From Saitoella complicata NRRL Y-17804 (taxonomy: Eukaryota > Ascomycota > Saitoellomycetes > Saitoellales > Saitoellaceae), in assembly GCF_001661265.1 (NCBI RefSeq), contig NW_017567017.1, positions 124,001 to 188,000 of the forward strand: a stretch of 64,000 bases of DNA, in the 5' to 3' direction. A program made the position numbers and the translations under genes. The notes under the pieces were generated by a model, which was given only the letters and a program-made list of their open reading frames with translations, did no database searches and was not told the DNA's origin. Shown here in pieces: positions 7,446 through 52,426 of the stretch. Each line of letters begins with the position of its first letter. Positions within the stretch are counted from its first letter, which is position 1.

Positions 7446-8495
7446 ATGGCCGAAGAAGCACCTTCAGCATATCCCACCGGCTTGGCTCCCATGGAAACCT
7501 TCGAAGAAGAAGAGGACACGGCCGGCCCCACCCCCCTCTCCAGGCTGGAAGGCAACGGCATATCCGCCAGTGACATCAAGAAGATCATCGAAGGAGGCTA
7601 CAACACCGTCGAATCAGTCGCCTACACCCCCAAACGCACCCTCCTCGCCATCAAAGGTATCTCCGAAGCCAAAGCCGACAAAATCCTCGCGGAGGCGTCA
7701 AAAATGGTTCCCATGGGTTTCACAACCGCGACAGAGTACCATCAGCGCCGGAGCGAGTTGATTACGATTACGACGGGGAGTAAGCAGTTGGATACGTTGT
7801 TGCAGGGTGGGATTGAGACGGGGAGTCTTACGGAGATATTTGGGGAGTTTAGGACGGGCAAGAGTCAGATTTGTCATACGCTTGCTGTGACATGTCAGCT
7901 GCCTATTGATATGGGTGGTGGTGAGGGAAAGTGTCTGTATATCGACACCGAAGGGACGTTCCGTCCCATCCGTCTCCTCGCGGTGGCGGAACGGTACGGA
8001 CTTAACGGCGAGGAAGTCTTGGACAACGTTGCATATGCCCGCGCATACAACGCCGATCATCAGTTAACACTCCTCCAACAAGCCGCAACAATGATGTCCG
8101 AATCCCGCTTCTCCCTCCTCATCGTGGACTCCGCAACCTCCCTCTACCGCACCGATTTCTCCGGACGCGGTGAACTCTCCGCACGCCAAACCCACCTCGC
8201 AAAATTCCTCCGTCAACTCCAACGCCTCGCGGACGAATACGGGATCGCCGTCGTCATCACGAATCAAGTCGTTGCACAAGTCGATGGGATGGCGACGTTT
8301 AATCCTGATCCGAAGAAGCCGATTGGAGGGAATATTATTGCGCATGCGAGTACGACACGGTTGAGTTTGAGGAAGGGGAGGGGGGAGCAGAGGATTTGTA
8401 AGATTTATGATAGTCCGTGCTTACCGGAGAGTGAGGCCATTTTTGCGATTTTGAATGAGGGGATTGGAGATCCGAAGACGGATGTTGATGCTTGA
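7446..8495 (+). CDS. RAD51: RAD51 recombinase
   Basis: Forms the nucleoprotein filament on single-stranded DNA and carries out strand exchange in homologous recombination. The 349-residue frame has the N-terminal helix-hairpin-helix domain (about residues 30-85), Walker A GEFRTGKS (about 132-139), Walker B LLIVDS (about 223-228), the [12 protein letters not shown] segment and the loop-2 region [31 protein letters not shown] matches Rad51 rather than Dmc1, which has a different sequence after the Walker B strand. The gene has no intron. Its start is the first Met of the frame that gives the usual acidic N-terminus. Synonymous codons change style in blocks along the gene (see findings). Confidence 0.97.
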
Positions 8496-8926
8496 GCTTA
8501 GGGGGTGTATGCTCACCTAGGGTGGGTAATGTCTTTGGTGATGCGATCTGTTTATTCGAAAAGGTATCAATTGCTGCTATCTAAGGCATATACAGCGGGA
8601 CTTTGGCGGCGTTTGGGATTTGAATGTTGTTTTCGTGCTTCGTGCTTCGTTGTGGGCTGTGTTCCGATCCGGCTTTTCGGGACAGGACATTTACTATACT
8701 CCTTACTTCTTATACTCTGCAATCTACTTCACAACTCTGCCTTCTTCCAATACATAAATCCTCTCTTCAACTCCGTCGTCTCTTATCCTTATCAGCCCCC
8801 TGCTCAAGTGTGGCACGGCTGAATTTCTTTCGGTCCCTGGCAGGGCGTCCCATACAAAACCAGCTGCTGTCAATTCACCCGCGTCTGTTGACTTCATCAG
8901 TTCGATCCAGCATTCAATCCACACCA
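8496..8926 (+). other. Intergenic region between RAD51 and PUF6
   Basis: Holds the RAD51 3' end and the PUF6 leader. The PUF6 frame is open back to 8624, but there is no suitable ATG in that part and the translation looks like untranslated leader. Confidence 0.5.
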
Positions 8927-10822
8927 ATGGCTCCGAACGTATCGAATAAGCGCAAGTTCACCCCGGTCAAGGCGGAGACGGGCCCCAGCAAGAAGTACGT
9001 GAAGGGCGACAAGGCAAAGGAGCCTGTTGAGTCCGAGGAGGAGGAAGAGGTTGAGGAGGAGGAGGATGAGGAGATGGGGGAGGCTGTTTCGGATGATGGC
9101 GCGGCGGGGTGGGTCGATGAGGATGCGGAGGATGTCGAGATGGAGGATGGCGAGAACGGAGAGCAAAAGCCGCCCAAGGACCCGAATGCGTCAAGGGAAG
9201 CGCACAAGGCACAGAAAGTATTGGCAGCAGAGCGTAAAGCCAACAAACCCCACGCCGACACCATGACCGCCGCCAAGAAGATCTGGGAGAAACTCCGTCT
9301 CAAGAAGTTGCCCGTTGAGGAGAGGAAGGCGTTGGTTGATGAGATGCTCGAGTTGACTAGGAGGAATGTTACGGAGATCATTTTCAAGCATGATGCGAGT
9401 AGATTCATTCAAACCTGTCTGAAATACGGAAGCCAGGAGCAGAGACAGGCTTTTGCGGCGGCGTTGAAGGGGAGGTATGTCGAGATGTCGAAATCTTCGT
9501 ATGGAAAGTATACGGTAATTAAGTGTCTGCACTATGGCTCCGCTGCGACTCGTGCGGGGATCTTCTCGGAGTTCTATGGAAATGTGAGAAAGTTGATTAG
9601 GCACAAGGAGGCGGCCTATGTCCTCGAAGACGCATTCCGTGATTATGGAAACACTGCGCAGAAGAACGCCTTGTTGGAGGAGTTCTACGGACAGGAGTTT
9701 GCGGTTTTCAAGAGTGAGAAGAATGATGCAAAGACGTTGGCGGAGATCTTGAAGGCGAATCCGGAGAAGAAGGATTTGATTTTGAGAAATTTGGCGGAGT
9801 CGATTGTTGGGTCGTTGAAGAAGGGATCGATTGGTTTCACGATTATTCACAGAGCTTTGCATGATTATATGAACAACTGCAATGATGCGCAGTTTGCGGA
9901 TATGTTGGATAACATCAAGGAGAACATTGCGGAGGTTGTGCACACCAAGGACGGTTCTGACCTCGCGATGCTGTGTTTCGCCAAGGGAACCCCTAAAGAC
10001 AGGAAAGTTCTTGTTCGTGCCTTGAAGCCTTACGCGCACAAGTTGGCGATGGACGAGTACGGTTGCTTGGTATTCTGCGCCATCTTCGAGACTGTCGACG
10101 ATACCGTCTTGGTGAACAAGTCCTTGTTGAGCGAGTTGAAGCCTCACCTTCAGGAAATGATGATGCACAAGTACGGCCGTCGTGTCTTGCTCTACATCCT
10201 CTGCGGCTGCGACCCTCGCTACTTCTTCAAGGAGTCGACAAAGATGTTGGACGCCGTCAAGGAAATCCGTCAAACTACCTCGAAGAAGGATCCCGAAGTC
10301 CGTCGTCAGGAGCTTCTGAGTTTCATTTCGGAGCCGTTGTTGGAATTGATTGCGTCTAAGCCCACGAAGCTTGTCGAGGAGAGTTTGAGTTCGCAGGTTG
10401 TTACGGAGACGTTGTTGTTTGCGAACGGTGATAAGGGCGCAGCGTTGGATGCCATCCTCAACATCGCCAGGGAGTCACCGGTTGTGGATGTCATGCACCC
10501 CGTTAACTTCAACTACGCTTCCCGTGTGTACAAGACCCTCGTTTCGGGTGGACACTGGGATCCTAAGGAGAACAAGATCCATAAGGTTGAGCCTAGGCTT
10601 GAGTTTGAGTCTATGATGTTGCCGGTTGTCGAGAAGCACCTCGCTGACTGGGCTTCTTCGAATGGATCTTATGTCGTTATTGCGTTGTTGGAGACGTTGG
10701 AGGGGGAGGAGAGGGAGAGGTTGGTGAGGAAGTTGAGGTCTCACAAGGCGGCGATTCAGGCTGCGTCGAAGAAGGATAAGGTTAGTGGTGGTGTTAAGAA
10801 GATTCTGGAGGTTATTGCTTAA
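8927..10822 (+). CDS. PUF6: Pumilio-family ribosome biogenesis protein PUF6
   Basis: RNA-binding nucleolar protein of the Puf-A/PUF6 group, known for a role in 60S subunit biogenesis and, in yeast, in repression of ASH1 mRNA. The 631-residue product starts with a basic segment, then a strongly acidic stretch (about residues 35-90), then the divergent pumilio repeats, with recognisable helices around HDASRFIQTCLKYGS, SYGKYTVIKCLHYGS, HKEAAYVLEDAFRDYGN, KYGRRVLLYILCG and the C-terminal SNGSYVVIALLETLEG. Length agrees with the yeast protein (about 656). The start is the first ATG that precedes the basic N-terminus. No intron. The basic C-terminal tail (SKKDKVSGGVKK) suits a nucleolar protein. 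Confidence 0.95.
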   Translation: MAPNVSNKRKFTPVKAETGPSKKYVKGDKAKEPVESEEEEEVEEEEDEEMGEAVSDDGAAGWVDEDAEDVEMEDGENGEQKPPKDPNASREAHKAQKVLAAERKANKPHADTMTAAKKIWEKLRLKKLPVEERKALVDEMLELTRRNVTEIIFKHDASRFIQTCLKYGSQEQRQAFAAALKGRYVEMSKSSYGKYTVIKCLHYGSAATRAGIFSEFYGNVRKLIRHKEAAYVLEDAFRDYGNTAQKNALLEEFYGQEFAVFKSEKNDAKTLAEILKANPEKKDLILRNLAESIVGSLKKGSIGFTIIHRALHDYMNNCNDAQFADMLDNIKENIAEVVHTKDGSDLAMLCFAKGTPKDRKVLVRALKPYAHKLAMDEYGCLVFCAIFETVDDTVLVNKSLLSELKPHLQEMMMHKYGRRVLLYILCGCDPRYFFKESTKMLDAVKEIRQTTSKKDPEVRRQELLSFISEPLLELIASKPTKLVEESLSSQVVTETLLFANGDKGAALDAILNIARESPVVDVMHPVNFNYASRVYKTLVSGGHWDPKENKIHKVEPRLEFESMMLPVVEKHLADWASSNGSYVVIALLETLEGEERERLVRKLRSHKAAIQAASKKDKVSGGVKKILEVIA

Positions 10823-11067
10823 GATGAAAATGGGTGAGAGTGTGTGAGGGAACGAATTACCACATGGATAGGAGCATTACTATAGCATCCACAATCATCT
10901 GAATTACAAGATTATATACCCTAGCAAAATCCGAATGGCCATAAAACGAAAGACCGACCGCACACTAAGCAAAAAACCATCCTGTCAAAATGAGCGTATG
11001 GGGTATTAGATGAATGACAGTCAAAAAGGCAAAACGTCAACGTATCTCCCCTTCATCACTCCATTAC

Positions 11068-12762: not shown

Positions 12763-15700
12763 TCAAGCCCGGCTATCCTTGAAAACCTCCAAAGCCAGAA
12801 ACGTCTCCATCTTCGTCAATGCATCCTTGTACTCCTTCCGGATCTCATCCAGACTAAGAACCACCCTGATCATGCCCTCCATACTCCTCCCAATCTTAAT
12901 CTTCTTCTCAGTTTGCTCGTCACCACCTTTAACCCTATGCGTAAATATCCATGCATTATCAGGATCCACACAGCTCAACGCCGTAATGACGGACAAGTAA
13001 GCTTCCGTAATCTCGAGGTACTCAGCTCCTCGCCATGCCGCAACGTTCCTAAGCTGCTGTGCACATTCGTACATCGCGCTCGCAGCACCGCGGAAGTTGG
13101 AGTGACTTACACGCCAAGAGTACAGAATCTTGTGGTATTGCGGTTGTGCGCGGACATCAACCATGTTCTTCGCCTTCTGGGCAAGGATCGCGTCAACCTC
13201 ATCTAACAAACCAAAGAATGGGTACGAACACATCCGTTCCGCCATGTTCTGTTCACACATGCTCGGGATAAGCTCCTTCAAGGCATCTCTCTGTCTAGGT
13301 GCGCTTGATACGCGGGTCATGGCCGTGTAAGCCTCATCCCACATTCCGCCTGCAATGGCAGCCTTGAGCATCCTCTGCACAATTTCCTGTTCAAGGATCT
13401 CATCCGGCACCGGCAGGATTGTCAATCCAATCAAGGCCTTCTGACATGACTGTACCACCGCATCATGTTGCAACTTGTTCTCAAACAACGTCGCGACGTG
13501 CGCGTAGTAATACGGCATTCCGTTCCCAAAAGCATTATCACCCTCCACCAACAAATCCCCAACAATTCCCTCCTCCAAAAGATCAACGCTCCCTTCTTCA
13601 GAAGACTGAGCAACACCAACCGCACCCTTCGTGAACAGCCTCTCCGCCTCATCATACTTCTCCGCCTCGAGCAATACGCGACCACATACGTACACACCCC
13701 ACGCACTCTGCGGCAACCACCTCTGAAACCCAACAGCTTCCTCCACATGACCAGCAGTAACGAGCGCACTCGCAACCCGGATCGCGAACCTGTCAACATC
13801 CGCCACGGCCTTCAATTCACCTAATACCTTTTCAAACGCACCCGAGATATTCAAAACCTCAAGATCGACGTTGACAGCGCTGACCTTCTTCACCACCTCC
13901 AAGACAGTCTCATCGGCCTTGCCCTCACCGGTGAACGTATCAATCGCCTGCTTGAGGATACTATATCCCTTCCACAACCCCAACGCACGATCATAAATAG
14001 CGTCCACCCCATCAAAGTAATCCACCTCCTCTTCATTACAAGCCGAAAACACCGCCAGCAATAACACATCCAACAACACCTCCCACCGTGCCCTTACCAT
14101 CTCATTAACCCCACTCCTCAACAATGCCGCACCAACAATACTCAATTCACCCTGCGTCGCCGGGATTGGAAATTCTGTTCCGTGTAGTGCGTCGACGCAG
14201 AGCATGTCGAGGATTCGTGTTACGGCCTCATCCCCTTCCGAAACCGCATCCAGAATCTCGTGCACGGCATCCTTTGTCGCAACTCCCTCCCCACCACCGA
14301 CCCCACGTTCCCAAACCCCCCACACCCGGTCCTCGACCGAGAAATTCGGTAACTGTGAAGCGTCTTCAGTGAGTACCACAACCGTATCATCCACCCCCTC
14401 CTCCGAAATCCCTTGTCGCAGCACCCTAGCGGCTCTCAGGAGTTCAGCGACATCAGTAACCCTCTTGCTCCCCGACCTCGCAACCTCAACAGCCGTCTCC
14501 AATGCACTTGCACGCCTCACCAACCCAACCCTCTCAGCCCTCACAACCCAGATATCTCCCTCCTCGCCCACACCAAGACTCAGACCTTCGGTCCCAGCTC
14601 TTTCAAACTCTGCGCAAACCCTCGCGAACCGTCCCCATTCGAGTGCGAGATCCATCCGGTATTTCTCGTAGACGAGCTGTCCCGTTACGGTATCGGTCTC
14701 CAACACACAATTCGTACCAACCAACTTCATCGCCTGACTCCTTAAACTCCGCACCGTGGACTCTCCTAGCGTCGACACACTACTAAACGTAGAAGCACCC
14801 GAGGAAGCGGAGTTAGGACGGAAGTTCTCGGCGTAGATCGTTAGGGCGAAGTGCATCGCCGGGATACTGAATCGTCCCGCCATGAAGATCTTGTTCGCCC
14901 ACGACTCGGCGATATCGGCACTCGTTGACCCCTGTCCACCCTCGGTGGCGATTGAGCCGGCGCCTTCGAGTGGTTTCAAACTACTCTTGACGTCGCTGCC
15001 GACTGATTCCCATTTATTTTCGAAATCCGTACCACCCACAGCGCCGTGGGTTAGTGCGTTTGGTTCGATTGACATAGTCGCGGTTGGGTCGAGTACGAGA
15101 CGTTGGATGGAGGACGAGGTGTTGGACTTCCAGAGGGCCCAGATGGCGGTACGGCCTTTGTCCTCGCGGGTCATTACCAGATCGGCGAGGAGCCACACAG
15201 CTCCCCCCTCAGGCGCCCGAGCCTTGATGTCGGGATGAAGTGGAGCGAGGTCGGTAGGTGATGATGAGGGCGCACCGAACATTGTGAACGTACTGTCGAG
15301 CGAGGAGCCGGATGCTGCGATGACGTAAAACGCATACGGTCCCTTCGTGGCGGGAACGAGAGTGTAAACCTGTCGTGAAGGTCGTAGCACTTGATCCGTC
15401 GGCGTCGTCGGTCTGGCGTTATTCAAGGCGATGGTATGGATGAGGTGTCCCCGATCAAGCGACCACACCTTGAGCTTCGCGTCAATCGAGACAGTAAGGA
15501 GGATGTTGTGCTTCTGCACGACCTTCATGGAGCAGACGAGGTTAGATGGTATCCGCCCTCGTCCACCAAATGGGAGGAGACCCTTGATCGCGCTGCTGAT
15601 TCCCCAGTTGTCGGTGTAGATATTCTCGGTCCAGCCCTGGTTGACACGGTCAAGACGGAGTACGGAGCCGTTGTTGAGTGCGACGAGGACTGTACTTGCT

Positions 15701-16149
15701 GAGACTGATTGTAGGAAGAATGGCGCATGGAAGGTGAATGTTGGTGGGAAGTGTACATCGAACTCGCCAGTTGCGAGACGGAGGGTATAGATCAAGTTCG
15801 CGGCGGTGAGGATATGGAAGTATTTCGTATCAGGAGATGAGACGTCCAAAACCTCCGCCGGGAACTGTACGAGTGTGCTTCTGGTACTCTCACCCGATAG
15901 ATCAAGGGGTGCGAGGAGGAGTGTAGTTTGTTGTTTTACGCGCCATAACACCCGTCTCCCACCCTTCGCCGTAAACACACCTGATCTCTGGCTCAGATAG
16001 TCATACGCGTATTTCTCCTTTGGGTTTTCCCTTGTTGTCGGCGGAGGGGTGACGGGGACTGTGTCTTCGGGGTATGGGGGTGGGCTGAGAGTGTATGAGG
16101 GCGCTGTTGCGAGGAGATGTGAGGCGTGGAAAGAAGTTTCTGTGTACAT
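12763..16149 (-). CDS. NUP120: Nucleoporin Nup120/Nup160
   Basis: Scaffold subunit of the Y-shaped (Nup84/Nup107) complex of the nuclear pore. The 1128-residue product has the family's N-terminal beta-propeller (roughly residues 20-480), with the typical opening segment KYAYDYLSQRSGVFTAKGG and SFxWRV-like VLWRVKQQ, and a helical C-terminal half with alpha-solenoid repeats ending in DAWIFTHRVKGG and KEYKDALTKMETFLALE. The frame continues upstream but with no ATG, so the Met before YTETSFHASHL is the start. No intron in 3.4 kb. The gene is divergent from the unknown gene at 16556. Identification rests on overall pattern, not on a catalytic motif. Confidence 0.85.
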   Translation of the reverse strand: MYTETSFHASHLLATAPSYTLSPPPYPEDTVPVTPPPTTRENPKEKYAYDYLSQRSGVFTAKGGRRVLWRVKQQTTLLLAPLDLSGESTRSTLVQFPAEVLDVSSPDTKYFHILTAANLIYTLRLATGEFDVHFPPTFTFHAPFFLQSVSASTVLVALNNGSVLRLDRVNQGWTENIYTDNWGISSAIKGLLPFGGRGRIPSNLVCSMKVVQKHNILLTVSIDAKLKVWSLDRGHLIHTIALNNARPTTPTDQVLRPSRQVYTLVPATKGPYAFYVIAASGSSLDSTFTMFGAPSSSPTDLAPLHPDIKARAPEGGAVWLLADLVMTREDKGRTAIWALWKSNTSSSIQRLVLDPTATMSIEPNALTHGAVGGTDFENKWESVGSDVKSSLKPLEGAGSIATEGGQGSTSADIAESWANKIFMAGRFSIPAMHFALTIYAENFRPNSASSGASTFSSVSTLGESTVRSLRSQAMKLVGTNCVLETDTVTGQLVYEKYRMDLALEWGRFARVCAEFERAGTEGLSLGVGEEGDIWVVRAERVGLVRRASALETAVEVARSGSKRVTDVAELLRAARVLRQGISEEGVDDTVVVLTEDASQLPNFSVEDRVWGVWERGVGGGEGVATKDAVHEILDAVSEGDEAVTRILDMLCVDALHGTEFPIPATQGELSIVGAALLRSGVNEMVRARWEVLLDVLLLAVFSACNEEEVDYFDGVDAIYDRALGLWKGYSILKQAIDTFTGEGKADETVLEVVKKVSAVNVDLEVLNISGAFEKVLGELKAVADVDRFAIRVASALVTAGHVEEAVGFQRWLPQSAWGVYVCGRVLLEAEKYDEAERLFTKGAVGVAQSSEEGSVDLLEEGIVGDLLVEGDNAFGNGMPYYYAHVATLFENKLQHDAVVQSCQKALIGLTILPVPDEILEQEIVQRMLKAAIAGGMWDEAYTAMTRVSSAPRQRDALKELIPSMCEQNMAERMCSYPFFGLLDEVDAILAQKAKNMVDVRAQPQYHKILYSWRVSHSNFRGAASAMYECAQQLRNVAAWRGAEYLEITEAYLSVITALSCVDPDNAWIFTHRVKGGDEQTEKKIKIGRSMEGMIRVVLSLDEIRKEYKDALTKMETFLALEVFKDSRA

Positions 16150-16555
16150 GCTTGACTGCAATTGCTGACTGGATGGGATCGAAGTCAGGGTATCTTGTGA
16201 GCAATTTGTGTCGTCAATGGACCTTGAAGGTCTTTTTGTTTGTATGACCGTAGAGACCCGCGATTGCGGTGAGGCACGCCGTACACCTTGTGACCAGAAT
16301 TGATTACAAACATGGAATTGAACAATTAGACTCAAATTGATACTTAAAAGACGAATGGCCTCTTACCAGATGTTCGCTACTCTTTCCCTTCCAGCTGCAC
16401 CCCACTACACCACTGCCGTCGAGGGCGCCGCCCCCGGCCCAGTGCACGGCTGCACCATATCCGCTCATTCCGATCCCCAGACAGCGAACAACACCTCCAG
16501 TCCTTCTCGCTCTCCTTCTCATTCTCAGTAACCCTAGCATTCAATACCATCCTCG
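16150..16555. promoter_or_regulatory. Divergent promoter region, NUP120 and unknown gene
   Basis: 406 bp between two start codons on opposite strands. No specific element recognised. Confidence 0.4.
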
Positions 16556-18095: not shown

Positions 18096-21000
18096 ATGCC
18101 AAACCCAAATGCTTTCCTCAAAGCGCTACTAGAACCAGACCCAAAAGACAAACGCATCCGCGACCTCTTGGCACAATGCCAGAACCATCCCGGGCCCGGC
18201 GGCGTGGTGATCCTCTGCCCTGTCGCTGAGAGTCTCGCGGGGTGGGATAGAGAGAGTGGCTTAGAATGGGCGGCATTGATGACTGAGGAGTTTCTCGGTG
18301 TGTGTTGGCCGTGCCGGCTGTCCACGACAATTGCTGACAACGTGATACACAGCGAGTCATGTGTTGAGAGCATCGGCGTTACCACAGGGGAGTACCAGAC
18401 ACCGTCCACGACAATATACGACTCTTAATGGTCGTACGGTTATTATAAAGGAAGATCACGTGTACGGACATAAGGGTTTCCAGACTCTTCATCGGGCAAA
18501 GTTACTCTCGGACGACCTCATCCCATCCTCACCACATGGCCAATCGGCCTCCCTTCGGTCGACACCACCAGTCTTGGTGTACTATCTAGATAGACCATTG
18601 ATCGGATCACCCTCAGACTGGTCCGCCCGACCCTGGCGTCCCCGAAAACTCCGAACATTTACGACATTTGGTGAACTCCTCGACGCCTACCCCGCCATCT
18701 CTCGACAACTCGAACCAGGCCTCGTCACTCTCTTCAAACACTTCAACGACTTCCAACTCGAGAAACACCTAGACCACCCACCATCCGAGGGAGATAACGA
18801 AGACGAAGAAGACGCGTTGGTCCGCAAGGTCGAGGACGTGACGAATGCCGCCGTGGAGTTGTTTAAGGGCGTCGATGATGGTGCCGTATCGCAACTAGTT
18901 CACACGAGTTCGGTCACGGGTGAAGGGATCGAACGTCTCATCGAGAAATTCGTTTCGGAACGCGCGCATGATTATTTGTTTCTCCGACTTGCGCACCTCC
19001 ACCGCCACCAGGATCAGGCGTTGAGGGAGGCGATTGAGGCTGCGAGGGGGGTTGATGTGGGACAGGTTGGGGTACCGGTTGTCGATGGGGAGGTTAGGGC
19101 GCGGTTGGGGAGGGCGGTGGGGAGGTTTGATGGGATTAGGGCTGCGCGGACGGCGGTGGAGAAGTTGGAGATATTGGTGGATGTGCTGGTCATACTTACA
19201 CACGCACAACAACGAGATCCTCACACAGAGGCGGAGGTGAGTGAGAAACCAAGATTGGGCGCGCTCGTTTCGGCGGATTATTTGATTCCGTTGATGTTGT
19301 TGGTCGTGCTGAGGTGTAATGTTGACCATTTGGATACGACGCTCGCATATATGCGGAAATTCTCGTTGGGGGATACGGGGCATGGGGAGTGGGCGTACGC
19401 CCTAAGCACCCTCGAAGCTGTCTTTTTCTATATCCTCGAAAACAAGGACAAACTGGCGGGGGTGGGGAGGGTGAATGAGGAGTATTGGACGGCGGTGAGG
19501 GAGGGGAGGGTGGGGCGGTGGCGAGAGTCGTGGAATGATGGGGAGATTAGTTTGGAGAGCGTGGCGAGGAGTCAGAATGGGAGGGGTGAGAGTGCAGTGA
19601 TGCAGGCTGTCAAAGCTGGTTCAGAGGAGAGCCTGTCATCGTTGGCGGGGTGGGGGGAACTCGCTACGGGGTTCTGGGTGACGGATGTTGACGAGAGGGG
19701 GATGACGCCGCTAGCGGAAGCTGTACAGCGTGAAGAACCTGGACTCGTACGACTGATATTGTCGCGTATTCTCCCCCGTGCGACGAAGTCCGAGTTGAGA
19801 CGGTATCTGGCGTACGCGGATTTTACAAAGAGGACCGTTGCGCATTGTATCGTCAACATGCCTTGGCTCATCGACGAGGTAGGCGAGCTCTTGCCGTGGG
19901 GCGCGAGGGACCAGAATGGGCAGACGCCGTTGTATACGCTTTGTACAATGTATGACCATACTGAATACCGCACCATGGTCCTGTCTGCGATACGAGCTTT
20001 GCGGGCGAGTAAGGGGGGGAGGGAGGTGAGGCTGGTTGACCATAGGGATGGGGTGAAGGGGAATACTTTGCTCCACATCATCCGCGATGTGGATTGTTTG
20101 AGAGAGTTACTGAAGGCCGAGGGCGAGGTAAACGCCCCCAACGCGAAAAGCCTCCCCGCCCTCCTCAACTTCGCAAAAAACGGGCGTGTGGATCTCCTAC
20201 GAGTATTTTTCGAGAGTGAGAGGGTTGATCGGTGGGTGAGAGATAGGAAGGGGATGACGGTTGTGCATATGTGTGGGAGTATGGAGGTATTGGAGTTTTT
20301 GTGTGCGCGTGGGGAGATGGGGATGAGTGTTGATGTGAGGGATTGGAGGGGGGTTAGGCCTGTTGAGGTTTGTAAGGATGATGGGATGAGGGAGAGGTTT
20401 GATGGTAAGCGTCACTCCCCCTTCGTCTCGTTGAGTGCTAACGGGGATTTTGGGTACAGAGTTGTCATTATGGGCTAGGCCTGTCATACAGGAGCGGTGT
20501 ACCGCGATTCTTCGTGTCACGGTTCTGGAAGACGCGAGTGTGCGGTTCCTGATTAAGAGTGGTATCCCGAACGATTCTGCGTCGACGACGGCGGTGTGGC
20601 GATCCTATGGTGATTTCCAGTTTCTGCTCGATCGGTTACGGCAGGAGAATCCGGATTCGTGGTTTCCGGCGTTACCGAGGAATATCCCGAACCCGTGTCT
20701 CTTACCTTCGAAACCGTCACGGAGTTTGTTGAATATGCTTTCGTTGCATCTTACGGCCTTCTTACACGCACTTTTACGGCACTCGACACTCTGTTCGCAT
20801 GAGCTGTTGTGGGAATTCATACTCATTCCTGAGCTGCAGTATGGCTTAATCCTGGAACGCACAAAGGAGAATACGGCGGTAAGTAAAGAGGAGATTTGGG
20901 CGAATTGGACACCGGCAGAGGGGGAGGCGGAGTTAGGGGTCATTGAGACTTGGTATGAGCATTCGAGGGGGCAGATGGAGGAGTTGGAGGAGGGGTGGGA

Positions 21001-25932: not shown

Positions 25933-28431
25933 ATGTCTACGATTTCGCCTATTCCGGCTCCACCAGGAGAGGTGGGTAGTGTATGATAAAATCCAAACCA
26001 TTTAGCAGCTAATGGGTCTCACAGTCTGCTCACGATCTCATTACTCGCCTTGATCACTTCGCGGAGACCAAAGCCAAGCTTAATGGCGACAAACGTCCAA
26101 CAGTCAAGCGCACAATGTTCAACCTCCCTTCCCTTCCTCACCCCATCAAATCCTGGAAGTTCGACGAGTGGTCGTATGGAAAGGAGAACAAGCCGCTCCC
26201 TACGAATGCCAGAGGACTGTTCTCGACGAAGGATGTTGTGAATGGGAAGGAAGTCATTGTGGCAAGGGGTTATGACAAGTTTTTCAATGTAGGGGAGGTT
26301 AAAAGGACACAGGTATACAAACATTCTCGGATGTTTCGTCGACATGGGCTAATGTTGTATACAGTGGAACTGGCTGGAATCGAACACCAAGGGTCCTTAC
26401 ACCCTCACTCTCAAGGAGAACGGATGTATCATCTTCATGTCGGCGTTACCTCCCACCACACGTGACGGAAAGCCCACAATTCTTGTGACTTCCAAACACT
26501 CCCTCGGAACCCGTGAAGAGATCAACATCTCGCATGCACAGAAGGGCGAAGAATGGCTTGAGAGGCACCTGAAGAGTGTCGGGAAGACCAAGGAGCAGTT
26601 TGCTGTGGAGTTGAGGAGGTTGAATGCCACGGCCGTCGCAGAGTTATGTGACGACTCCTTCGAAGAACACATCTTGGCATACCCACCTGAGCGCTCCGGA
26701 CTCTACCTCCACGGTCTCAACCTCAACACCCCAATCTTCGCAACCTGGAGTATGGAAGATGTCGCAACCTTCGCTCAAACCTGGGGCATGAAAAAGGTCG
26801 AATACCTCCGCAAACCCGACGTCACCTCCCTCCGCACCTTCCTCGAAGAAGCCGCCGAGACTGGTTCTTGGAACGGGATTGACGTGGAAGGATTCGTTGT
26901 CCGCTGCAAAGCTCGCGAATCGGATCAGGTGGAGTACTGGGAAGACTTTTTCTTCAAGTACAAGTTCGACGAGCCGTACTTGATGTACAGGCAGTGGAGG
27001 GAGGTTACGAAGGCGATCATTGCGGGGAGGGAGCCGAAGTATAACAAGCACAAGGCGATTACTGCGCGGTACATCTCCTGGACGAAGGACTACCTGAAGA
27101 AGAACCCGAAGGTCGCAGAGGATTACAAGAACAACCATGGGATTATTGCGATGCGGGATGCGTTTATTGCGGCACAGGGGATGAGTGGAGCAGAGATGGC
27201 GAACGCTATGCGTGATGCGGTTGAGGAGAAGAGTGCTGGAGAGAGAAAGGGCCCATTGGTGTTGGTCCCTGTTTCGTCGATTGGGAGTGGGAAAACTACG
27301 ATTGGGTTGTGTTTGGGGAAATTGTTTGGATGGGGACATGCGCAGAACGATAACAATAACCGCCGGAAGGGTCGTGCGATGGCATTTGCGCAGATGATTG
27401 TGGATGAGGCGAAGGTGAAGAAGGTGGTGTTTGCGGATAGGAATAATTCGGCGCGTGTTGATCGGAAGCAGTTGGTTGGGGATATTTTGAGTTTGATGCC
27501 GGATGCGAGGTTCGTTGCGTTGCAGTACGTGCACGAGTTCGAGGGGATGAGTGTTCAGGAGTCGCACAAGAAGATTTTGGATGTGACAGCGGCGAGGGTC
27601 TTTGCTCGTGGCGACAATCATCAGGCGATCCAAGCTGCATCTGACAGTCGCGAAAATGTCATGAATATTATGAAGGAGTTCCTCCATCGATTCGAGAGTG
27701 TGGACATGGGTTGTCAGGAAGGTGATGATGAGTTTGAGGCATTGGTTGATTTGGACGTGGCCGCCGATACGAAGACGAACTTGAAGAAGGTTATCCAGGA
27801 CCTCATGGAGTATGATTTGACTATCATCCCTCGCATGCCGGATGGGAAGGAGATGGATGCGGCGATTAAGTGGGCGTTGGAGGAGTACTCACCCACCAAC
27901 AAGAAGATTGTCAAAGCGCCCAAGCCGAAACCGGTCAAGTACTATGGCGCATTCATCAAGGACGACATCCCTCGCATCATCGAAAACGTCATTGAGGCAC
28001 AACCCGAGAGTGTGCGTCACTTCTGGGAACACATGAAGAAGAACAAGCGAGTCCAGGACGCATTCCACATCACCCTCATCCACACCAACTCCTCCAAAAC
28101 CCACTCCAACATGTGGAAATGGTACACCGAAGCCGCCGCCAGATCCTCCAACGGAATCATCAAAACTGTTGACGTTCACCTCGACACTTTGGTTTGGAAT
28201 GAGCGTGTTATGGCTATTATTGTGAGGATTCATCAAGATGCGGGGTTGGAGTATGTTAATAAGGTTTTGCATGTCACGATTGGGACAGCGGAGGAGAAGA
28301 TTAGGCCGGTGGAGGCAAACATGCTGTTGGAGGAGAGGGTGTGTGGACATAGGACGGAGGCGATGCAGGAGATTGATTTGAAGCCCATGAATATGAAGGT
28401 GAGGGCGGAGGTTAAAGGAGCGAGTTTCTGA
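25933..28431 (+). CDS. TRL1: tRNA ligase, fungal tripartite type
   Basis: Joins tRNA halves after intron removal and, in fungi, HAC1-type mRNA in the unfolded protein response. Exons 25933-25971, 26025-26312 and 26365-28431; introns of 53 and 52 nt, both phase 0; 797 residues. The ligase domain (about 60-400) has the nucleotidyl-acceptor lysine in KENGC (Lys126) and EGFVVRCK further on. The polynucleotide kinase has the P-loop SSIGSGKTT (about 413). The C-terminal cyclic phosphodiesterase has the two H-x-T motifs, HITLIH (about 676) and HVTIGT (about 743). All active-site motifs are present, so the enzyme looks intact. It is divergent from SGT2 and convergent with the esterase-like gene. Confidence 0.96.
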
Positions 28432-36771: not shown

Positions 36772-39102
36772 ATGTCTGTCTCCTCCCTATCTCCACCGCC
36801 GGACGACATCTCAATATCCTCCCACTCAACCTCCATATCAACCCCCAAACCACCGGTACCCTTACTTGCAGCTCGGGCCGCAACACCATCTGTTACCGAT
36901 TTACCTTCGTTACGGCAATCATGGAAATACGCCGCGATCAATCAGTTCGTGTTTATGTTTTGGGATGCGCTAAAGGTTCCAGAGTATGAGCCTGAGGAAT
37001 TGGAGCTTGCGTTGCTTGCGGAGGAGGATGCGGTTGATGGGTTGTGTATGAAGTTACGATTGACGCTGGTAAAGGCCATCTCCTCAAACCGCGGAATCAC
37101 GGAATCAAACGTCGACGAATTCGTTAATCGTCAATGGGAACGCCGTCGCCCCCACCAACCCTCACCTTACCGCCCTCCCCCTACCGAAGACGAAAAGGAA
37201 ACTGGCGCAGAGCCGGCCACGGAGCTGAGAACGTGGATGGAGCTTAGTTTGGATGAGAAGCTGGATGTGCTGTGGAGGTTGTGTGAGTTCCAGATGGATA
37301 ATCCAGAGAGGTTTAGGGAGAGGATGGGTGCGGGGATGAGTGAGCAGGAACAGTTGGGGTGGAGAATTGATCCGATTGGGTTTGATTATTTGGGGTGGAG
37401 TTATTACCTTCTCGACGATAACCGGCTTTACCGCCGATACGAACATGTACCTGACGACGAGGAGAAAGCACCGAAGAAGAAGACACCGGCGAGAGCGACG
37501 CGGAAGAGAAAGCGTGGGGCCGTGGTTGAGGAAGCCGAGGAGGAGAAGGAGCCAAAAGAGAAGATTGAGTATGGCAAATGGGAATGCATCTGCACCACCA
37601 TCGACGAGTGGCAATCCTTCACCGACTCCCTCGCCCCCTCTCTTTCCGACCCCAACACCTCCGCTCTCCACACCCACCTCACAACCAACGTCCTCCCCCA
37701 GCTTCACCTCGACGCCGAAGCTCGCGCCCGTGAAGCCGCTGCTAAACTCAAAGAACAACAGAAGTTCGAAGCCTTGAATACGAGAAAGCGGTCGTCACGT
37801 CTTGAGGCTAGGGAGGCGGAGGAGAGGGAGAGGATGGAGAAGGAGAGGGAGGAGAGGAGGAGACGGGAATTGGTCGAGGAGGCAGAGAGAAAGACGAGGG
37901 GGGTTAAGGATGGGGGCGAGAGGAGGATGACGAGGGAGGAGAGGTTGAGAGAGAGGGAAATGAGGGCCTTGGGCATTGAGATGAGTAAACAAAATACGCC
38001 GGCTACTTCCGAGCCTCCCAAGTCCTCACCCAAGAAGGAACCAGAGCAGGAGAAGGAGGAGACCTGGTTGTTTGATTGTCCCCCCTGCGGCACATACGGC
38101 TACAACCTCGATGACGGCGAAATGCAGATTTGCTGTGAGCGGTGTGATCGGTGGTCGCATATTAAGTGTGTCTCTGACGTCAAAGAGAGGGAGGAATTGA
38201 TCAAGAGAAATGATGAGGGGACGTTGGAGGGTGTTGTTTTTGTTTGTGAAAGGTGTAAGGCCAAGGAGGGTGGGCAGGTGAAGGAGGAGATGAAGGCGAC
38301 GCCTACGCCTACACCTACTCCTATGCCGGGGCCGGGGCCGAGTGCGTACAATCCGTACAACCCGTCTCCGACACCAGCGCAACAGGCTCAACAAAGACCG
38401 CCGGTTATGGCCCCACAGCAGCAGCCGATGATGGTGAACCCCAACACCAATGCCACGCCCTACGCTGCAGCAGCTGGCATGCGAGGCCCGCCCCTGGGGA
38501 CATTCGGAGGTCCTGCGATGCCCATGGTACAACAACAACAACAACAGCATGCGCAGCAGCAGTTGCAGACCCAACCTCCTCAGCGGAAAGGGCAGTATCC
38601 ACCTGAAATGGCGTACCCCCAGCAACAATGCCAGATACCCGTTCAGGGACAGTGGCCCCCGCCGGCTACGCAGCCGCAACCACGTGCACATACTCCGGGA
38701 ACACCGGTACAACAAGGACAAGGACAGTGGGCACAGGGCGTGCCGCAGCAGCCGCAGCAGCAGAGATGGCAAAGTCCGGGTGCGATGCAGTCGGGGTGGA
38801 GGGTACCCGTTGGGATTGCGGCACAGCCTCAGGCGCAAGCTCAGGGAATGACTCAGCAGGGATATACGCTGCAGGGGCAGTTTGGGGGACTGGTGCCTGT
38901 ACAAGGTCAGAGGGTGAACGGGGGTTATCCTCAGCAGGGGCAAGTTGTGAGGGGTGGACATCCGGTGTATGGATCCGCACAGGGACAGGTGAACGGAGTA
39001 TATGGAGGTGTGCCGCTGCCTCAGCAGCAACAGGGTTATTATCCACCACCCCAAGGACGAGGGCAGCAGTATCAGGGTGGCTATCCACCACAACAAAGAT
39101 AG
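36772..39102 (+). CDS. Chromatin protein with DDT/WHIM-like region and PHD finger
   Basis: A 776-residue nuclear protein. Residues about 48-130 resemble a DDT domain (AAINQFVFMFWDALKVPEYE) and about 155-222 a WHIM motif (SLDEKLDVLWRLCEFQ; IDPIGFDYLGWSYYLLDDNR). This order is seen in the partner subunits of ISWI-type remodellers (ACF1/BAZ, RSF1, CECR2). A long charged coiled coil rich in Glu/Arg covers about 310-410. The PHD finger (about 435-500) begins CPPCGTYGYNLDDGEMQICC and continues with CERCDRWSHIKC and a last CERC, complete in zinc ligands. The C-terminus (from about 506) is Gln/Pro-rich and low in complexity. No intron. It probably reads histone marks as part of a remodeller; that is inference from architecture. 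Confidence 0.85.
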   Translation: MSVSSLSPPPDDISISSHSTSISTPKPPVPLLAARAATPSVTDLPSLRQSWKYAAINQFVFMFWDALKVPEYEPEELELALLAEEDAVDGLCMKLRLTLVKAISSNRGITESNVDEFVNRQWERRRPHQPSPYRPPPTEDEKETGAEPATELRTWMELSLDEKLDVLWRLCEFQMDNPERFRERMGAGMSEQEQLGWRIDPIGFDYLGWSYYLLDDNRLYRRYEHVPDDEEKAPKKKTPARATRKRKRGAVVEEAEEEKEPKEKIEYGKWECICTTIDEWQSFTDSLAPSLSDPNTSALHTHLTTNVLPQLHLDAEARAREAAAKLKEQQKFEALNTRKRSSRLEAREAEERERMEKEREERRRRELVEEAERKTRGVKDGGERRMTREERLREREMRALGIEMSKQNTPATSEPPKSSPKKEPEQEKEETWLFDCPPCGTYGYNLDDGEMQICCERCDRWSHIKCVSDVKEREELIKRNDEGTLEGVVFVCERCKAKEGGQVKEEMKATPTPTPTPMPGPGPSAYNPYNPSPTPAQQAQQRPPVMAPQQQPMMVNPNTNATPYAAAAGMRGPPLGTFGGPAMPMVQQQQQQHAQQQLQTQPPQRKGQYPPEMAYPQQQCQIPVQGQWPPPATQPQPRAHTPGTPVQQGQGQWAQGVPQQPQQQRWQSPGAMQSGWRVPVGIAAQPQAQAQGMTQQGYTLQGQFGGLVPVQGQRVNGGYPQQGQVVRGGHPVYGSAQGQVNGVYGGVPLPQQQQGYYPPPQGRGQQYQGGYPPQQR

Positions 39103-39114
39103 ACTTAGTCTAGC

Positions 39115-45113: not shown

Positions 45114-45288
45114 CGGTTTAGAATGGATTCCATGGCAATAGGGCGGTTTTAGGCGTTCTTTTGACGTATTTATCTGATCAAACTTCATGAATCGAACTAT
45201 ATTCCGAAACCCATGGTGCCTAAATGAGGCAATATCCTGATGAAGATCCCTACATCGCGCCTGGACGTGGATATTCTCCATGATCAGC

Positions 45289-47205: not shown

Positions 47206-47447
47206 TGGAGATCTTTGCGGTACTGATCCGAGCGTCAATTGATGGTAGTGATCCGGATATGTGATTTTTCGAAGTAAGTGCAAGCTGAGATTTCCTGAAG
47301 GTGTGAGCGTCGAAATAAAGTTCAGAGTACGAGGGATTGTGCGGGAGCCCTTGCAGTCTGCAGAATGACGTGAACTGACCGTGGGAGAAAATGATGAGGA
47401 AGCAAAATGTGAACCCGACATGCAAAAGAAACCGATTCTATTGAAGC

Positions 47448-49574: not shown

Positions 49575-50582
49575 TTACGCCTTGGTCACCTGCGCATTCG
49601 ACTCAACCTTCTCAACCTCCTTCTCCCCCGCCGTCCTAACACTACTCTCCTCCCCCTTCCTCCTCTCCTTCTCCTCCTGACTCAACAACCGTCCCTCCTT
49701 CTTCTTCTCCTCCCTCTCACTATACCGATCAACAAGCATCTCCCCCTTCCCCCTCAACAACGCTCCAAACCGATACAATTCCTCACAAACATCGACGACG
49801 CGATCACGGAGCGACGAGGGCTTGAGACGGTCGGAGGGGGTGAACTCGGTCCAGGCTTTGGGTATAGATGATTGGTTTGGGATTGTGACCATGCGCATCC
49901 AGCGGCCGAGGATGCGGAGGGCGTTGACGGTGTTGAAGGATTGGGAGCCGCCGTTGACTTGGGCGATGGCGAGGGTTCTGCCCTGTGTTGGCCTCACACT
50001 TCCCAAACTTAAGGGGAGCCAGTCGATTTGGTTTTTGAAGACAGCGGTGAGGATACCGTGTTGTTCCGGACAAACCCACACTTGACTTTCACTCCATACA
50101 CTCAACTCCCTCAACTCCTGTACCTTCGCGTGCTTTTCTGTCTCCGGGTTATCATCCTTTATAGGGAGGCCCGCGGGGTTGAAGACACGGACTTCTGCGC
50201 CGAGGTGGGTGAGGATTCGGGCGAATTCGTAGGCGGTTAGGCGGGAGTAGGAGCGGGTTCGGAGGGAGCCGTAGAGGACGAGGACTTTCAAAGGTTTGTC
50301 GCCGAGGAGTTCCTGTCCGAGTTCTTTTGCTTGGGTGAGGTCAAGGTCGGAGACCCAGTCGGGTTCGGTGGATTCTGTGAGTTTGAGGTAAGGTTTGTAG
50401 TCTACCTCTGGCAGCCGAACGCCGTTCGTGGCAGGGGTCGGGGTGGTCGTGGTGATGGTCGACATGGTTCTGGTAGGAAGGCGGGTAAGTCTGGAGGTGG
50501 CGACGAGAGCTGGCCTGGGTGTTATAAGAAGCGTAGCAGGTCTGATTAGTCGTGTGAGTTGAAGAACACGAGCAACGACCAT
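49575..50582 (-). CDS. arsH: NADPH-dependent FMN reductase, ArsH type
   Basis: Flavoprotein of the ArsH group, known to oxidise methylated or aromatic trivalent arsenicals and to reduce quinones with NADPH. The 335-residue frame has the flavodoxin-like FMN loop [14 protein letters not shown], followed by PERHG-equivalent [40 protein letters not shown] and [20 protein letters not shown], all hallmarks of ArsH. The C-terminal 60 residues are a charged low-complexity tail absent from bacterial ArsH. The first ATG adds 39 residues rich in Arg/Leu/Thr without acids, resembling a mitochondrial presequence; a second Met at 50465 would give a cytosolic form. No other ars genes sit beside it. Confidence 0.9.
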
Positions 50583-50910
50583 TCCCTTCGAGGACTTGAG
50601 AATTAATTCAGCAACCGGAGTCTGCGCGGGAAGTTACAGCTGCCTTTATTACAAGCACTCGGCAAACCCGTAGACTGCCCAATTCGGGATGCTTTCCTGC
50701 CACGAAAAAGGCAGAGACTACCCAAATTCATGATACACTTCCAAATGAAAAAAGGGATGGTTTCTCCCTTTTTGCCAAAAATTGATCTTCAGAATCCAAG
50801 GCTGGCATGCAAGGTTATGCTTCCTCGATGCACAGCCGCAGCAGCCGACGATGCACGTGAACGCGATGCCTCCAACTCACCTCCAACAATCGCAATTCCA
50901 TTCAAACACA
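50583..50910. promoter_or_regulatory. Divergent promoter region, ArsH and PRP46
   Basis: 328 bp between start codons. ATGs in frame with PRP46 occur upstream of its start (for example in the frame open from 50782) but lack family similarity. Confidence 0.4.
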
Positions 50911-52426
50911 ATGGCCGATACCCAATCCCAACCACCAATGCCATCACCAGAGTCTCACGCCAAACTCCTTCTCCGCCGCTCCGCAAAACGCACCCGTGCC
51001 CTCTTCGCCGAATCAGACTCCTCCTCAGCACCAACCCAGGCACTACCCTCTATTACGGAGGATCCGGCAATAAAAGCACGGATCACATCGAAGTTGAGGG
51101 CAGAGTATGAGCATGTACGGGAGTTACCGGCACATATCGCCGCGAAGCAGCCTGGGGCGAAGAAGAAGGTTGTAAAGAAAGCCAAGAGTGCAACGGTGGA
51201 GGATGGCGATGATGAGGGTACGATGAAGATGATCGAGGGAATCCCAACAAGAGAAGATGGAGATCAAACTCAGGCTCTCACCATCCGTGCGCCTGGTGCT
51301 TCTGGTGCTGGAGCAGCAGGAGTGGGGGGAAGAAGAATACCGGCTGGCGCACAGCACGGGTTGATTAGACGGTCGCACGTACAACCGATCAAACCAGAAT
51401 GGCATGCGCCGTGGAAGTTGATGAAGGTGATTAGTGGGCATTTGGGGTGGGTCCGGTGTGTCGCTGTCGAGCCTGGAAACCAGTGGTTCGCGACTGGAGC
51501 TGGTGATCGGACGATCAAGGTTGGTCCACGCCTCCTATCCCCCATTCAACAAATTACTAACAAACCTGTAGATTTGGGACCTCGCATCAGGCAACCTAAA
51601 GGTGACGTTGACCGGCCACATCTCCACCGTCCGCGGCCTCGCCGTCTCCCCCCGCCACCCCTACCTCTTCTCCTGCGCCGAAGACAAACAGATCAAATGC
51701 TGGGACCTAGAACAAAACAAAGTAATCCGGCATTACCACGGCCACCTTTCCGGAATATATTCCCTCGCTCTCCACCCCACCCTCGACGTCCTCGTCACCG
51801 CGGGAAGAGATAGTGTGGCGAGGGTGTGGGATATGCGGACCAGGCAGAATGTGATGACGTTGGGGGGACATACGGGGACGATTAGTGATGTGAAGTGTCA
51901 GGAAAGTGACCCGCAGGTGTTGACGGGGAGTATGGATAGCACGGTCAGGCTTTGGGATTTGGTTGCAGGTAAGGCGATGAACGTTTTAACGCACCACAAA
52001 AAGAGCGTACGCGCTCTCGCTGTACACCCGACGGAATGGACCTTCGCCTCCGGAAGCGGCGATAACATCAAACAATGGAAATGCCCCGAAGGCGCATTCA
52101 TGCAGAACTTCGAGGGTCATAACGCAATCATAAACACCTTGTCAGTCAACACCGACAACGTTCTCTTCTCGGGCGCGGATAACGGGTCGATGAGTTTCTG
52201 GGATTGGAAGAGTGGGCATAGGTTCCAGACGATGCAGACCGTCGTGCAGCCGGGGAGTTTGGAGAGTGAGGCGGGGGTGTTTGCGAGTACGTTCGATAGG
52301 AGTGGGTTGAGGTTGGTTACGTGTGAGGCGGATAAGAGTATTAAGATATGGGGGGAGGATAGGAATGCGACGCCGGATACTCATCCTTTGGAGTGGAAGC
52401 CGACGCTGGCGAGGAGGAAGTTTTAG
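50911..52426 (+). CDS. PRP46: Pre-mRNA-splicing factor PRP46 (PLRG1), WD40
   Basis: Member of the Prp19-associated (NTC) complex of the spliceosome. Exons 50911-51519 and 51572-52426; 52-nt intron with GTTGGT, a perfect TACTAAC branch point and TGTAG; 487 residues. The N-terminal about 170 residues include the family start ([17 protein letters not shown]) and [35 protein letters not shown] opens the beta-propeller. Seven WD repeats follow, with WD ends such as [28 protein letters not shown] and FWDWKSG. The last residues KPTLARRKF are typical of Prp46. The start was chosen by the family N-terminus. Confidence 0.95.

What the first reader, a model, noticed from the sequence alone, without database searches (positions are those of the whole stretch)
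7446..52426. Block mosaic of synonymous codon endings (A/C-ending versus G/T-ending) within single exons
Within uninterrupted exons the third positions are mostly A or C for about 100-400 bp, then mostly G or T, then back. RAD51: A/C-ending about 7446-7720, G/T-ending 7740-7900, A/C-ending 8090-8260, G/T-ending 8280-8490. The same alternation is visible in TRL1 (26690-26880, 26990-27480, 27950-28160, 28200-28420), the PHD gene (37080-37200 then 37210-37400), PRP46 (51640-51800, 51810-51970), the Vrl1-type gene (18640-18790 then 19020-19180) and, read on the minus strand, NUP120 and ArsH. Splitting by amino (A/C) versus keto (G/T) bases is not explained by tRNA sharing, which pairs C with T. 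A patchy, strand-asymmetric mutational or repair process, or an unknown constraint on DNA/RNA, could cause it.
Basis: partly seen in the sequence, partly recalled or inferred. Interest (0 to 1): 0.7.

Follow-up and report, generated by a model that had tools for sequence, protein, structure and literature searches.

The report
Exon-phased mosaic of synonymous codon endings
In this yeast-like fungus the silent third letters of codons switch between A/C and G/T in blocks of about 100-400 bases that tend to follow where genes and exons begin and end, which looks more like the trace of a strand-flipping process tied to transcription than a feature of the proteins or of tRNA use.

Summary
All 14 blocks given with coordinates are 77-92% pure in the stated direction. 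Run counts fall below synonymous shuffles (z<-2) in 20 of 25 window ORFs and in 72 of 96 ORFs from 314 kb of the genome. Twenty E. coli genes show no such autocorrelation. C/T-ending and A/G-ending two-fold codons switch together, in 21 of 21 codon boxes; amino acids drift too, but along G versus C rather than the full amino/keto axis.

The blocks are phased to gene anatomy. On average genes start A/C and end G/T over the last ~60 codons. Predicted introns sit at a G/T-to-A/C switch (31 of 39; 17 of 17 in a second set, 6 of them shared). A/C-to-G/T steps outnumber the reverse, more weakly also far from ORF ends.

The gene-end part is known: opposite 5'/3' GC skews in unicellular fungi (McLean & Tirosh 2011). 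Distance to the stop explains only 6% of block variance. My nine literature searches showed no paper on repeated, intron-phased units. Best reading: a transcription-coupled, strand-switching substitution bias reset at introns; internal resets may mark lost introns or pause sites. Avoidance of local mRNA folding is the main rival. The mechanism is unproven.

The parts
7446..7720 (+). RAD51, A/C-ending block
   Evidence: 17 of 87 degenerate codons G/T-ending
7740..7900 (+). RAD51, G/T-ending block
   Evidence: 48 of 53
8090..8260 (+). RAD51, second A/C-ending block
   Evidence: 6 of 54
8280..8490 (+). RAD51, terminal G/T-ending block up to the stop codon
   Evidence: 62 of 69
18640..18790 (+). 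VPS9/ankyrin gene, A/C-ending block
   Evidence: 8 of 50
19020..19180 (+). VPS9/ankyrin gene, G/T-ending block
   Evidence: 49 of 53
26690..26880 (+). TRL1 tRNA ligase, A/C-ending block
   Evidence: 11 of 58
26990..27480 (+). TRL1, G/T-ending block
   Evidence: 122 of 154
27950..28160 (+). TRL1, A/C-ending block
   Evidence: 12 of 64
28200..28420 (+). TRL1, terminal G/T-ending block
   Evidence: 59 of 68
37080..37200 (+). PHD gene, A/C-ending block
   Evidence: 9 of 39
37210..37400 (+). PHD gene, G/T-ending block
   Evidence: 49 of 55
51400..51519 (+). PRP46, last 40 codons before the intron, G/T-ending
   Evidence: 27 of 35
51520..51571 (+). PRP46 intron as placed by me (GTTGGT...ACTAAC...TAG); core C-rich and nearly G-free, so in this gene the switch falls at the 5' splice site
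   Evidence: intron core A8 C14 G1 T7; flanking exons read ...DRTIK | IWDLASGN
51572..51691 (+). PRP46, first 40 codons after the intron, A/C-ending
   Evidence: 6 of 39 G/T-ending
51640..51800 (+). PRP46, A/C-ending block of the finding
   Evidence: 6 of 52
51810..51970 (+). PRP46, G/T-ending block
   Evidence: 41 of 48
52170..52426 (+). PRP46, terminal G/T-ending block (not in the finding)
   Evidence: 70 of 78
12766..16362 (-). NUP120, block mosaic
   Evidence: run z=-6.2; Pfam Nup120 domains
49578..50633 (-). ArsH-like NADPH-dependent FMN reductase, block mosaic
   Evidence: run z=-7.4, longest run 35; PF03358

Best explanation
Each transcribed unit carries a strand-specific substitution bias that flips sign along it. 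Near the transcript start, and again after an intron, the coding strand keeps C and A; further downstream, up to the next intron or the transcript end, it keeps T and G. One asymmetry is enough: on the strand that is more exposed or less repaired, C goes to T more often, by roughly 2.6-fold either way (my estimate, the square root of the ~6.7-fold odds shift at two-fold codons). Seen on the coding strand this gives T and G when that strand is exposed and A and C when the template strand is. I infer that the exposed strand depends on the stage of the RNA polymerase II cycle and that splicing resets the stage. In genes with few introns the repeated A/C-then-G/T units are then resets at internal pause sites or relics of lost introns. 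Shown here: the blocks, the axis at synonymous sites, average phasing to starts, ends and introns, the preferred direction of the steps, and weakness or absence in the most codon-biased ORFs. Inferred: mutation rather than selection, polymerase stage as the cause, and what the internal resets are.
For: C/T-ending and A/G-ending two-fold codons covary over ~100 bp, and 21 of 21 codon boxes shift. K-versus-M log-odds shifts are alike for two-fold C/T (1.6-2.0) and A/G (1.7-2.5) by following base. Four-fold compositions of the two block types are close to complements, e.g. Thr A.20 C.56 G.15 T.09 versus A.12 C.14 G.55 T.20. Leu TTG/CTG at the first position shifts and 18 of 25 amino-to-keto replacement pairs rise in K blocks, so it is not only a codon effect. 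Phasing: last 60 codons +0.31 to +0.41, then -0.11 at 80-100 codons before the stop. Untranslated flanks take part: -0.16 to -0.31 over the 80 bp before 28 A/C-starting ORFs, and +0.18 for ~40 bp after 58 G/T-ending ORFs, against +0.09 and +0.02 after 36 others. Introns: 39 predicted, upstream +0.215, downstream -0.179, P=7e-5, 31 of 39 in this direction; 17 of 17 in a set chosen without third positions, 6 of them shared with the first. 241 GTRNGT words inside exons show no such switch. Direction: 72 A/C-to-G/T versus 24 reverse steps over all ORFs, 21 versus 12 internally; step skewness stays positive >=120 codons from ORF starts and >=130 from stops (P 0.016, 0.002 and 0 of 500 reversals for w=20, 30, 40). 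The seven ORFs with the strongest C/G codon preference have autocorrelations of -0.02 to 0.036, against about 0.10 in ordinary bins.
Against: In strict noncoding DNA the K/M autocorrelation is only about one eighth of that at third positions (0.016 versus 0.132 at 12-30 bp), which a neutral regional process would not give unless it acts only on transcripts. The 9 of 18 high-confidence introns that follow G/T exons do not continue that bias (-0.03+-0.06), and the regression of intron composition on both flanks has too little power. At codon positions 1-2 the drift is G versus C, not amino/keto: T/A does not follow (r=-0.075), within-class pairs also move (6 of 26 positive, mean -0.20), and K>R, N>S and E>G go against the keto direction. 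T versus A at four-fold sites depends on neighbours (log-odds shift 0.02 to 1.54) and A/G shifts range down to 1.14. Excess change on the template strand, needed for the A/C blocks, has no cause that I know. No hexamer clearly marks internal boundaries. Over all 96 ORFs codon bias and block strength correlate only weakly (rho -0.13, P=0.20). No related genome, expression, R-loop or mutation data were available.
Confidence: 0.43

Rival explanations
1. Selection against local mRNA folding. Where third positions are all A/C, or all G/T, a stretch cannot pair well with itself, so selection would split mRNAs into domains; splice signals, start and poly(A) region would fix the sign at exon ends.
For: Native 90-nt windows are less stable than whole-gene synonymous shuffles by 1.9+-0.2 kcal/mol (54 of 60 genes), while 20 E. 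coli genes are more stable than theirs (-0.82; 2 of 20 less stable); an earlier run gave 1.69, 67 of 80. Shuffles that keep the K/M class of every site still differ by 0.67+-0.10 (60 of 80), and shuffles within 40-codon bins by 0.29+-0.08 (43 of 60).
Against: Shuffling synonyms only within 20-codon bins removes the difference (0.07+-0.06, 32 of 60), so nothing beyond local composition is seen; E. coli gives -0.52 in that test, and no fungal baseline was available. Folding is nearly symmetric under reversal, yet A/C-to-G/T and reverse steps differ in number and step skewness. A C-rich intron next to a G-rich exon end, as in PRP46, would promote pairing. The most codon-biased ORFs lack blocks.
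Confidence: 0.2
2. A strand-symmetric DNA process centred on the A/C-to-G/T steps: the A/C-left, G/T-right unit reads the same on both strands, as at a replication origin or at a fixed Okazaki junction or nucleosome dyad.
For: Near-complementary composition of the two block types; A/C-to-G/T steps look sharper than the reverse (roughly 10 versus 15 or more codons, read off simulated profiles); a hidden Markov model finds 67 direct A/C-to-G/T and 0.3 reverse transitions.
Against: No peak at one nucleosome repeat; zero crossing ~150 bp and minimum at about 210-300 bp. Phasing to introns and transcript ends and weakness in noncoding DNA point to transcription. No hexamer clearly marks boundaries.
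Confidence: 0.15
3. Opposite 5'/3' gene-end skews alone (the published fungal pattern), with internal blocks being noise.
For: Gene starts A/C, gene ends G/T on average.
Against: Distance to the stop explains 6% of the variance of 30-codon means (about 8% after sampling variance; distance to the start was not fitted); autocorrelation in 83 segments >=120 codons from the ORF start and >=130 from the stop is 0.100 over 1-10 codons against 0.129 overall.
Confidence: 0.07
4. Codon-level cause: tRNA reuse, wobble class or translation speed.
For: A/C versus G/T endings would be Watson-Crick versus wobble reading for G34/U34 tRNAs (recalled).
Against: Codon-biased genes use C-ending two-fold Y and G-ending two-fold R codons (EF2-like: 0.86 and 0.99), so each block type mixes a favoured and an unfavoured ending; Leu first positions, amino acids and untranslated flanks follow the blocks.
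Confidence: 0.03

Closest known systems
[quoted passage not shown] parts 1-3 of 4 of the text read, and a word search)
   Same: C-biased gene 5' ends, G-biased 3' ends, extension into flanks, effect on amino acids along G versus C.
   Different: There one gradient per gene in averages, flat A/T skew, and no intron phasing (the word search finds 'intron' once, in a remark on higher eukaryotes). Here several units per gene, phased to introns, with T/A following G/C at synonymous sites; distance to the stop explains 6% of variance.
C>G skew at transcription starts in plants and fungi (Fujimori et al. 2005, PMC555766; passages seen)
   Same: C-rich transcript starts.
   Different: Concerns the start region; nothing on blocks inside genes in the passages seen.
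Transcription-coupled and splicing-coupled strand asymmetries in eukaryotic genomes (Touchon et al. 2004; seen only as a reference, text not held)
   Same: By its title, skews tied to transcription and splicing.
   Different: Could not be read, so the difference is not established; this is the paper most likely to bear on novelty.

Membership tests
Opposite 5'/3' GC skew of unicellular fungi | C-bias on the coding strand at gene 5' ends | tested here: met
   GC skew -0.07 to -0.17 in 20-bp windows from -80 to +159 around the first ATG of the ORFs, except -0.007 in the first 20 bases, which hold the ATG (the last window, 140-159, is -0.068); K3 -0.13 in the first 20 codons
Opposite 5'/3' GC skew of unicellular fungi | G-bias at gene 3' ends | tested here: met
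   GC skew +0.20 to +0.375 over the last 180 bp
Opposite 5'/3' GC skew of unicellular fungi | extends into untranslated flanks | tested here: met
   +0.26 and +0.24 in the 40 bp after the stop; K-M -0.16 to -0.31 in the 80 bp before 28 A/C-starting ORFs
Opposite 5'/3' GC skew of unicellular fungi | intermediate skew in mid-gene, one gradient per gene | tested here: not met
   mid-gene averages are near zero, but internal segments of single genes keep strong block autocorrelation (0.100)
Opposite 5'/3' GC skew of unicellular fungi | A/T skew flat along genes | tested here: inconclusive
   no clear trend in the all-base average, but T/A at third positions follows the blocks, r=0.376
Codon autocorrelation by tRNA reuse (recalled) | codons read by one tRNA cluster; effect confined to codons | tested here: not met
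   C/T pairs split across block types; Leu first positions, amino acids and flanks also shift; no tRNA gene set was examined
Nucleosome-phased asymmetry | period of one nucleosome repeat | tested here: not met
   autocorrelation crosses zero at ~150 bp, minimum about 210-300 bp, no peak near 165 bp; no nucleosome map available
Transcription-coupled mutation | strand-biased new mutations in transcribed DNA | not testable with these tools
   no mutation, polymorphism or relative-genome data

The most novel reading that the evidence does not exclude
Every exon, present or ancestral, is an independent skew unit, A/C at its start and G/T at its end, so the internal G/T-to-A/C zones in intron-less genes are fossils of lost introns: a genome's former exon structure is written in its silent sites, and splicing resets a strand-switching mutational regime.
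Probability: 0.2. Interest if true: 0.85.

Novelty: new variant of a known kind. Interest (0 to 1): 0.62.

Why it matters
Synonymous sites are widely treated as neutral or as tuned for translation. Here they carry a strong signal (two-fold codons shift about 7-fold in odds between the two block types) that on average follows transcript and exon anatomy. If mutational, it is a sequence-only record of how strand exposure or repair changes along a transcript and at splice sites, and it could bias dN/dS, codon-usage and gene-finding methods. If internal resets mark lost introns, it makes intron loss readable within one genome. If selective, it would be unusually strong selection on mRNA folding in ordinary genes.

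Tried and rejected
Chance: rejected by shuffles and by 20 E. coli genes. Plain GC3 variation: the S/W covariance at four-fold sites is a quarter or less of the K/M one at distances up to 23 codons; R/Y also varies, at about 60%, as G-versus-C change implies. Replicative strand: K3 differs little between + and - ORFs (0.54/0.49, 0.54/0.54, 0.53/0.50). Sequence motif at the boundaries: 2965 hexamers with at least 25 occurrences, largest |z| 4.4 with z spread 1.19; GTRNGT neutral. Base-level selection on folding: not seen once composition is kept in 20-codon bins. Long antisense ORFs looked like dual coding; I take them as a by-product of composition, without a dedicated test. My first ORF list picked some antisense ORFs; re-chose 4 of 96, and the ORF statistics used the uncorrected lists (one of the seven most codon-biased ORFs is among those replaced). 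The first intron test (35 introns) was misleading because introns lie where the sign switches. The 150-intron list probably holds many false positives; only its 18 strict members were used. The rotated-block folding control (native less stable in 48 of 80 genes, difference 0.34+-0.18) was confounded by lower G+C in the control.

Species: recalled as Saitoella complicata from genome size, G+C and the ITS; supported only by a table listing 14.14 Mb and 35 for it (PMC4392786, one passage) against 14.12 Mb in 34 contigs here. No call names the genome.

Literature: nine paper searches listed no paper on repeated, intron-phased blocks of this kind. The searches matched 4 to 61 papers each, of which at most 20 were listed, and most papers were seen only as titles and openings of abstracts; subscription journals are largely missing. 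This is the whole basis of the novelty statement.
Full report
What was checked. The finding says that synonymous third positions alternate in blocks between A/C (M) and G/T (K). I scored every degenerate codon as M or K. All 14 intervals with coordinates hold as described: M blocks have 11-23% K and K blocks 79-92% K. In the window 20 of 25 ORFs of at least 250 aa have fewer runs than synonymous shuffles at z<-2, 12 of 25 at z<-4, RAD51 at z=-9.7. I then read 314 kb in all, about 2% of the 14.1 Mb genome: the window with 80 kb around it, 120 kb of contig 1 and 50 kb of contig 2. Of 96 ORFs of at least 300 aa, 72 have z<-2 and 39 z<-4. Twenty E. coli genes give an autocorrelation of about 0.003 against 0.129 here over 1-10 codons.

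The axis. In the window ORFs C-versus-T at two-fold Y codons and G-versus-A at two-fold R codons covary across tens of codons nearly as strongly as each does with itself; at four-fold sites the K/M covariance is at least four times the S/W one at distances up to 23 codons, and R/Y varies at about 60% of it. In 21 of 21 codon boxes the K fraction is higher in K than in M blocks. The log-odds shift is about 1.9 for both transition pairs; by neighbouring base it ranges from 1.1 to 2.5, and T-versus-A at four-fold sites depends strongly on neighbours, 0.02 to 1.54. At four-fold sites the two block types are close to complements: for threonine A.20 C.56 G.15 T.09 in M blocks and A.12 C.14 G.55 T.20 in K blocks. 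Leucine TTG/CTG follows (T-first 0.81 in K, 0.43 in M). Amino acids follow too: E, K, G, V, M rise in K blocks and H, T, S, P, I rise in M blocks; 18 of 25 amino-to-keto replacement pairs rise in K blocks, but within-class A>C and G>T pairs also move (6 of 26 positive, mean -0.20) and T/A at positions 1-2 does not follow (r=-0.075). So at positions 1-2 the drift is G versus C, and only the synonymous sites show the full amino/keto axis. Either way the signal is not confined to codon choice.

Phasing. Averaged from the stop codon backwards in steps of 20 codons, the K-M score is +0.35, +0.41, +0.31, +0.08, -0.11, -0.08, +0.05; from the first ATG it is -0.13, -0.12, -0.05. The G-over-C skew runs about 40 bp past the stop and fades. 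Upstream of 28 ORFs that start A/C-ending the flank is M for about 80 bp; after 58 ORFs that end G/T the flank is K for about 40 bp. Thirty-nine predicted short introns have upstream exons at +0.215 and downstream exons at -0.179 (t=4.45, P=7e-5; 31 of 39 in this direction; random exonic positions differ by -0.027 on average with sd 0.41). A second set of 17 introns, chosen by splice motifs and coding potential at codon positions 1 and 2 only, shows the contrast in 17 of 17 (0.51+-0.08); 6 of the 17 are shared with the first set and 11 are new. In the window PRP46 is a clear case: 27 of 35 K before the intron at 51520-51571, 6 of 39 K after it, and an intron core with 14 C and 1 G. GTRNGT words lying inside exons (241) show no such switch, so it belongs to introns, not to the motif.

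Direction. A three-state hidden Markov model fitted emissions of 0.20, 0.51 and 0.80 and found 67 direct M-to-K transitions against 0.3 direct K-to-M; a fitted model can exaggerate such a contrast, so I rely on the model-free tests. With a 30-codon step filter there are 72 M-to-K against 24 K-to-M steps at threshold 32 (40 against 15 at 36; 158 against 104 at 24). In 83 internal segments the numbers are 21 against 12 (9 against 7 at 36; 67 against 51 at 24). Step skewness exceeds random gene reversal overall and internally (P 0.016, 0.002, and 0 of 500 for w=20, 30, 40 internally). M-to-K steps look sharper, roughly 10 codons, than K-to-M, 15 or more, by comparison with simulated profiles; this is a rough reading. 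The last detected M-to-K step lies 45-111 codons before the stop in 26 of the 48 ORFs that have one.

What limits it. The seven ORFs with the strongest C/G codon preference have autocorrelations of -0.02 to 0.036, against about 0.10 for ordinary ones, and an EF2-like gene (C at 0.86 of two-fold Y codons, G at 0.99 of two-fold R codons) has 0.007; one of the seven is probably an antisense ORF, and over all 96 ORFs the rank correlation is weak and not significant (rho -0.13, P=0.20). Strict noncoding DNA has about one eighth of the third-position autocorrelation. Of 18 high-confidence introns, the 9 after K exons have a core at -0.03+-0.06 and the 9 before M exons at -0.12+-0.06; the regression in the second set is too weak to decide whether introns follow their neighbours.

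Explanation. The near-complementary composition, effect in all contexts at the two transition pairs, drift of amino acids, extension into untranslated flanks and weakness under strong codon selection suit a substitution bias acting on DNA strands during transcription. One strand-biased process such as C-to-T change, switching its favoured strand along each unit, gives the shifts at two-fold codons and the G/C and T/A skews at four-fold sites. Phasing to transcript starts, transcript ends and introns ties the switch to the transcription cycle. The weak noncoding signal, the G-versus-C rather than keto drift at positions 1-2, and the lack of a known reason for template-strand excess near starts are real difficulties. 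Avoidance of local mRNA folding is the main rival: native mRNAs are less structured than whole-gene shuffles (54 of 60) and slightly less than 40-codon-bin shuffles (43 of 60), but not than 20-codon-bin shuffles (32 of 60), and it does not by itself predict a direction. A replication- or nucleosome-like dyad process would fit the symmetry but not the phasing to introns.

Known and new. McLean and Tirosh (PMC3315797, parts 1-3 of 4 read) showed C-biased 5' ends and G-biased 3' ends across unicellular fungi and proposed mutational and adaptive models; Fujimori et al. (PMC555766, passages) showed C-rich starts. Gene starts and ends here belong to that pattern. Distance to the stop explains 6% of block variance, so most of the mosaic is not covered by it. 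Repeated units, phasing to introns, directional steps and the amino/keto axis at synonymous sites are the additions; nine capped literature searches did not list a paper describing them, and one possibly relevant paper (Touchon et al. 2004) could not be read. I therefore call it a new variant of a known kind.

Limits. Gene models are ORF-based, introns are predicted, no relative genome was available, and the sample is three stretches of one genome. The species name is recalled, with a size match only.

Noticed in passing
window 26644-27888 (-), 9191-10474 (-); L028, L034: Very long antisense ORFs opposite real genes, in some fetched elongation-factor loci longer than the sense frame found; probably a by-product of composition and codon use, but able to mislead ORF-based annotation.
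   Followed up: partly
L027 (G000:C17:4-1525): An rDNA ITS region lies at the very end of contig C17, followed by coding sequence with a visible C-rich to G-rich switch; the 5.8S/ITS looks ascomycete-like (recall).
   Followed up: partly
genome locus L034: An EF2-like gene uses C at 0.86 of two-fold Y codons and G at 0.99 of two-fold R codons, a sign of translational selection in this fungus.
   Followed up: partly
window 1-64000: 557 N bases lie inside the window; ORFs are cut there.
   Followed up: no
C26 stretch around the window (G000:C26:64001-208000): The + strand is slightly K-rich whatever the gene orientation (K3 0.54 on + ORFs, 0.49 on - ORFs), a hint of a weak regional strand bias.
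   Followed up: no
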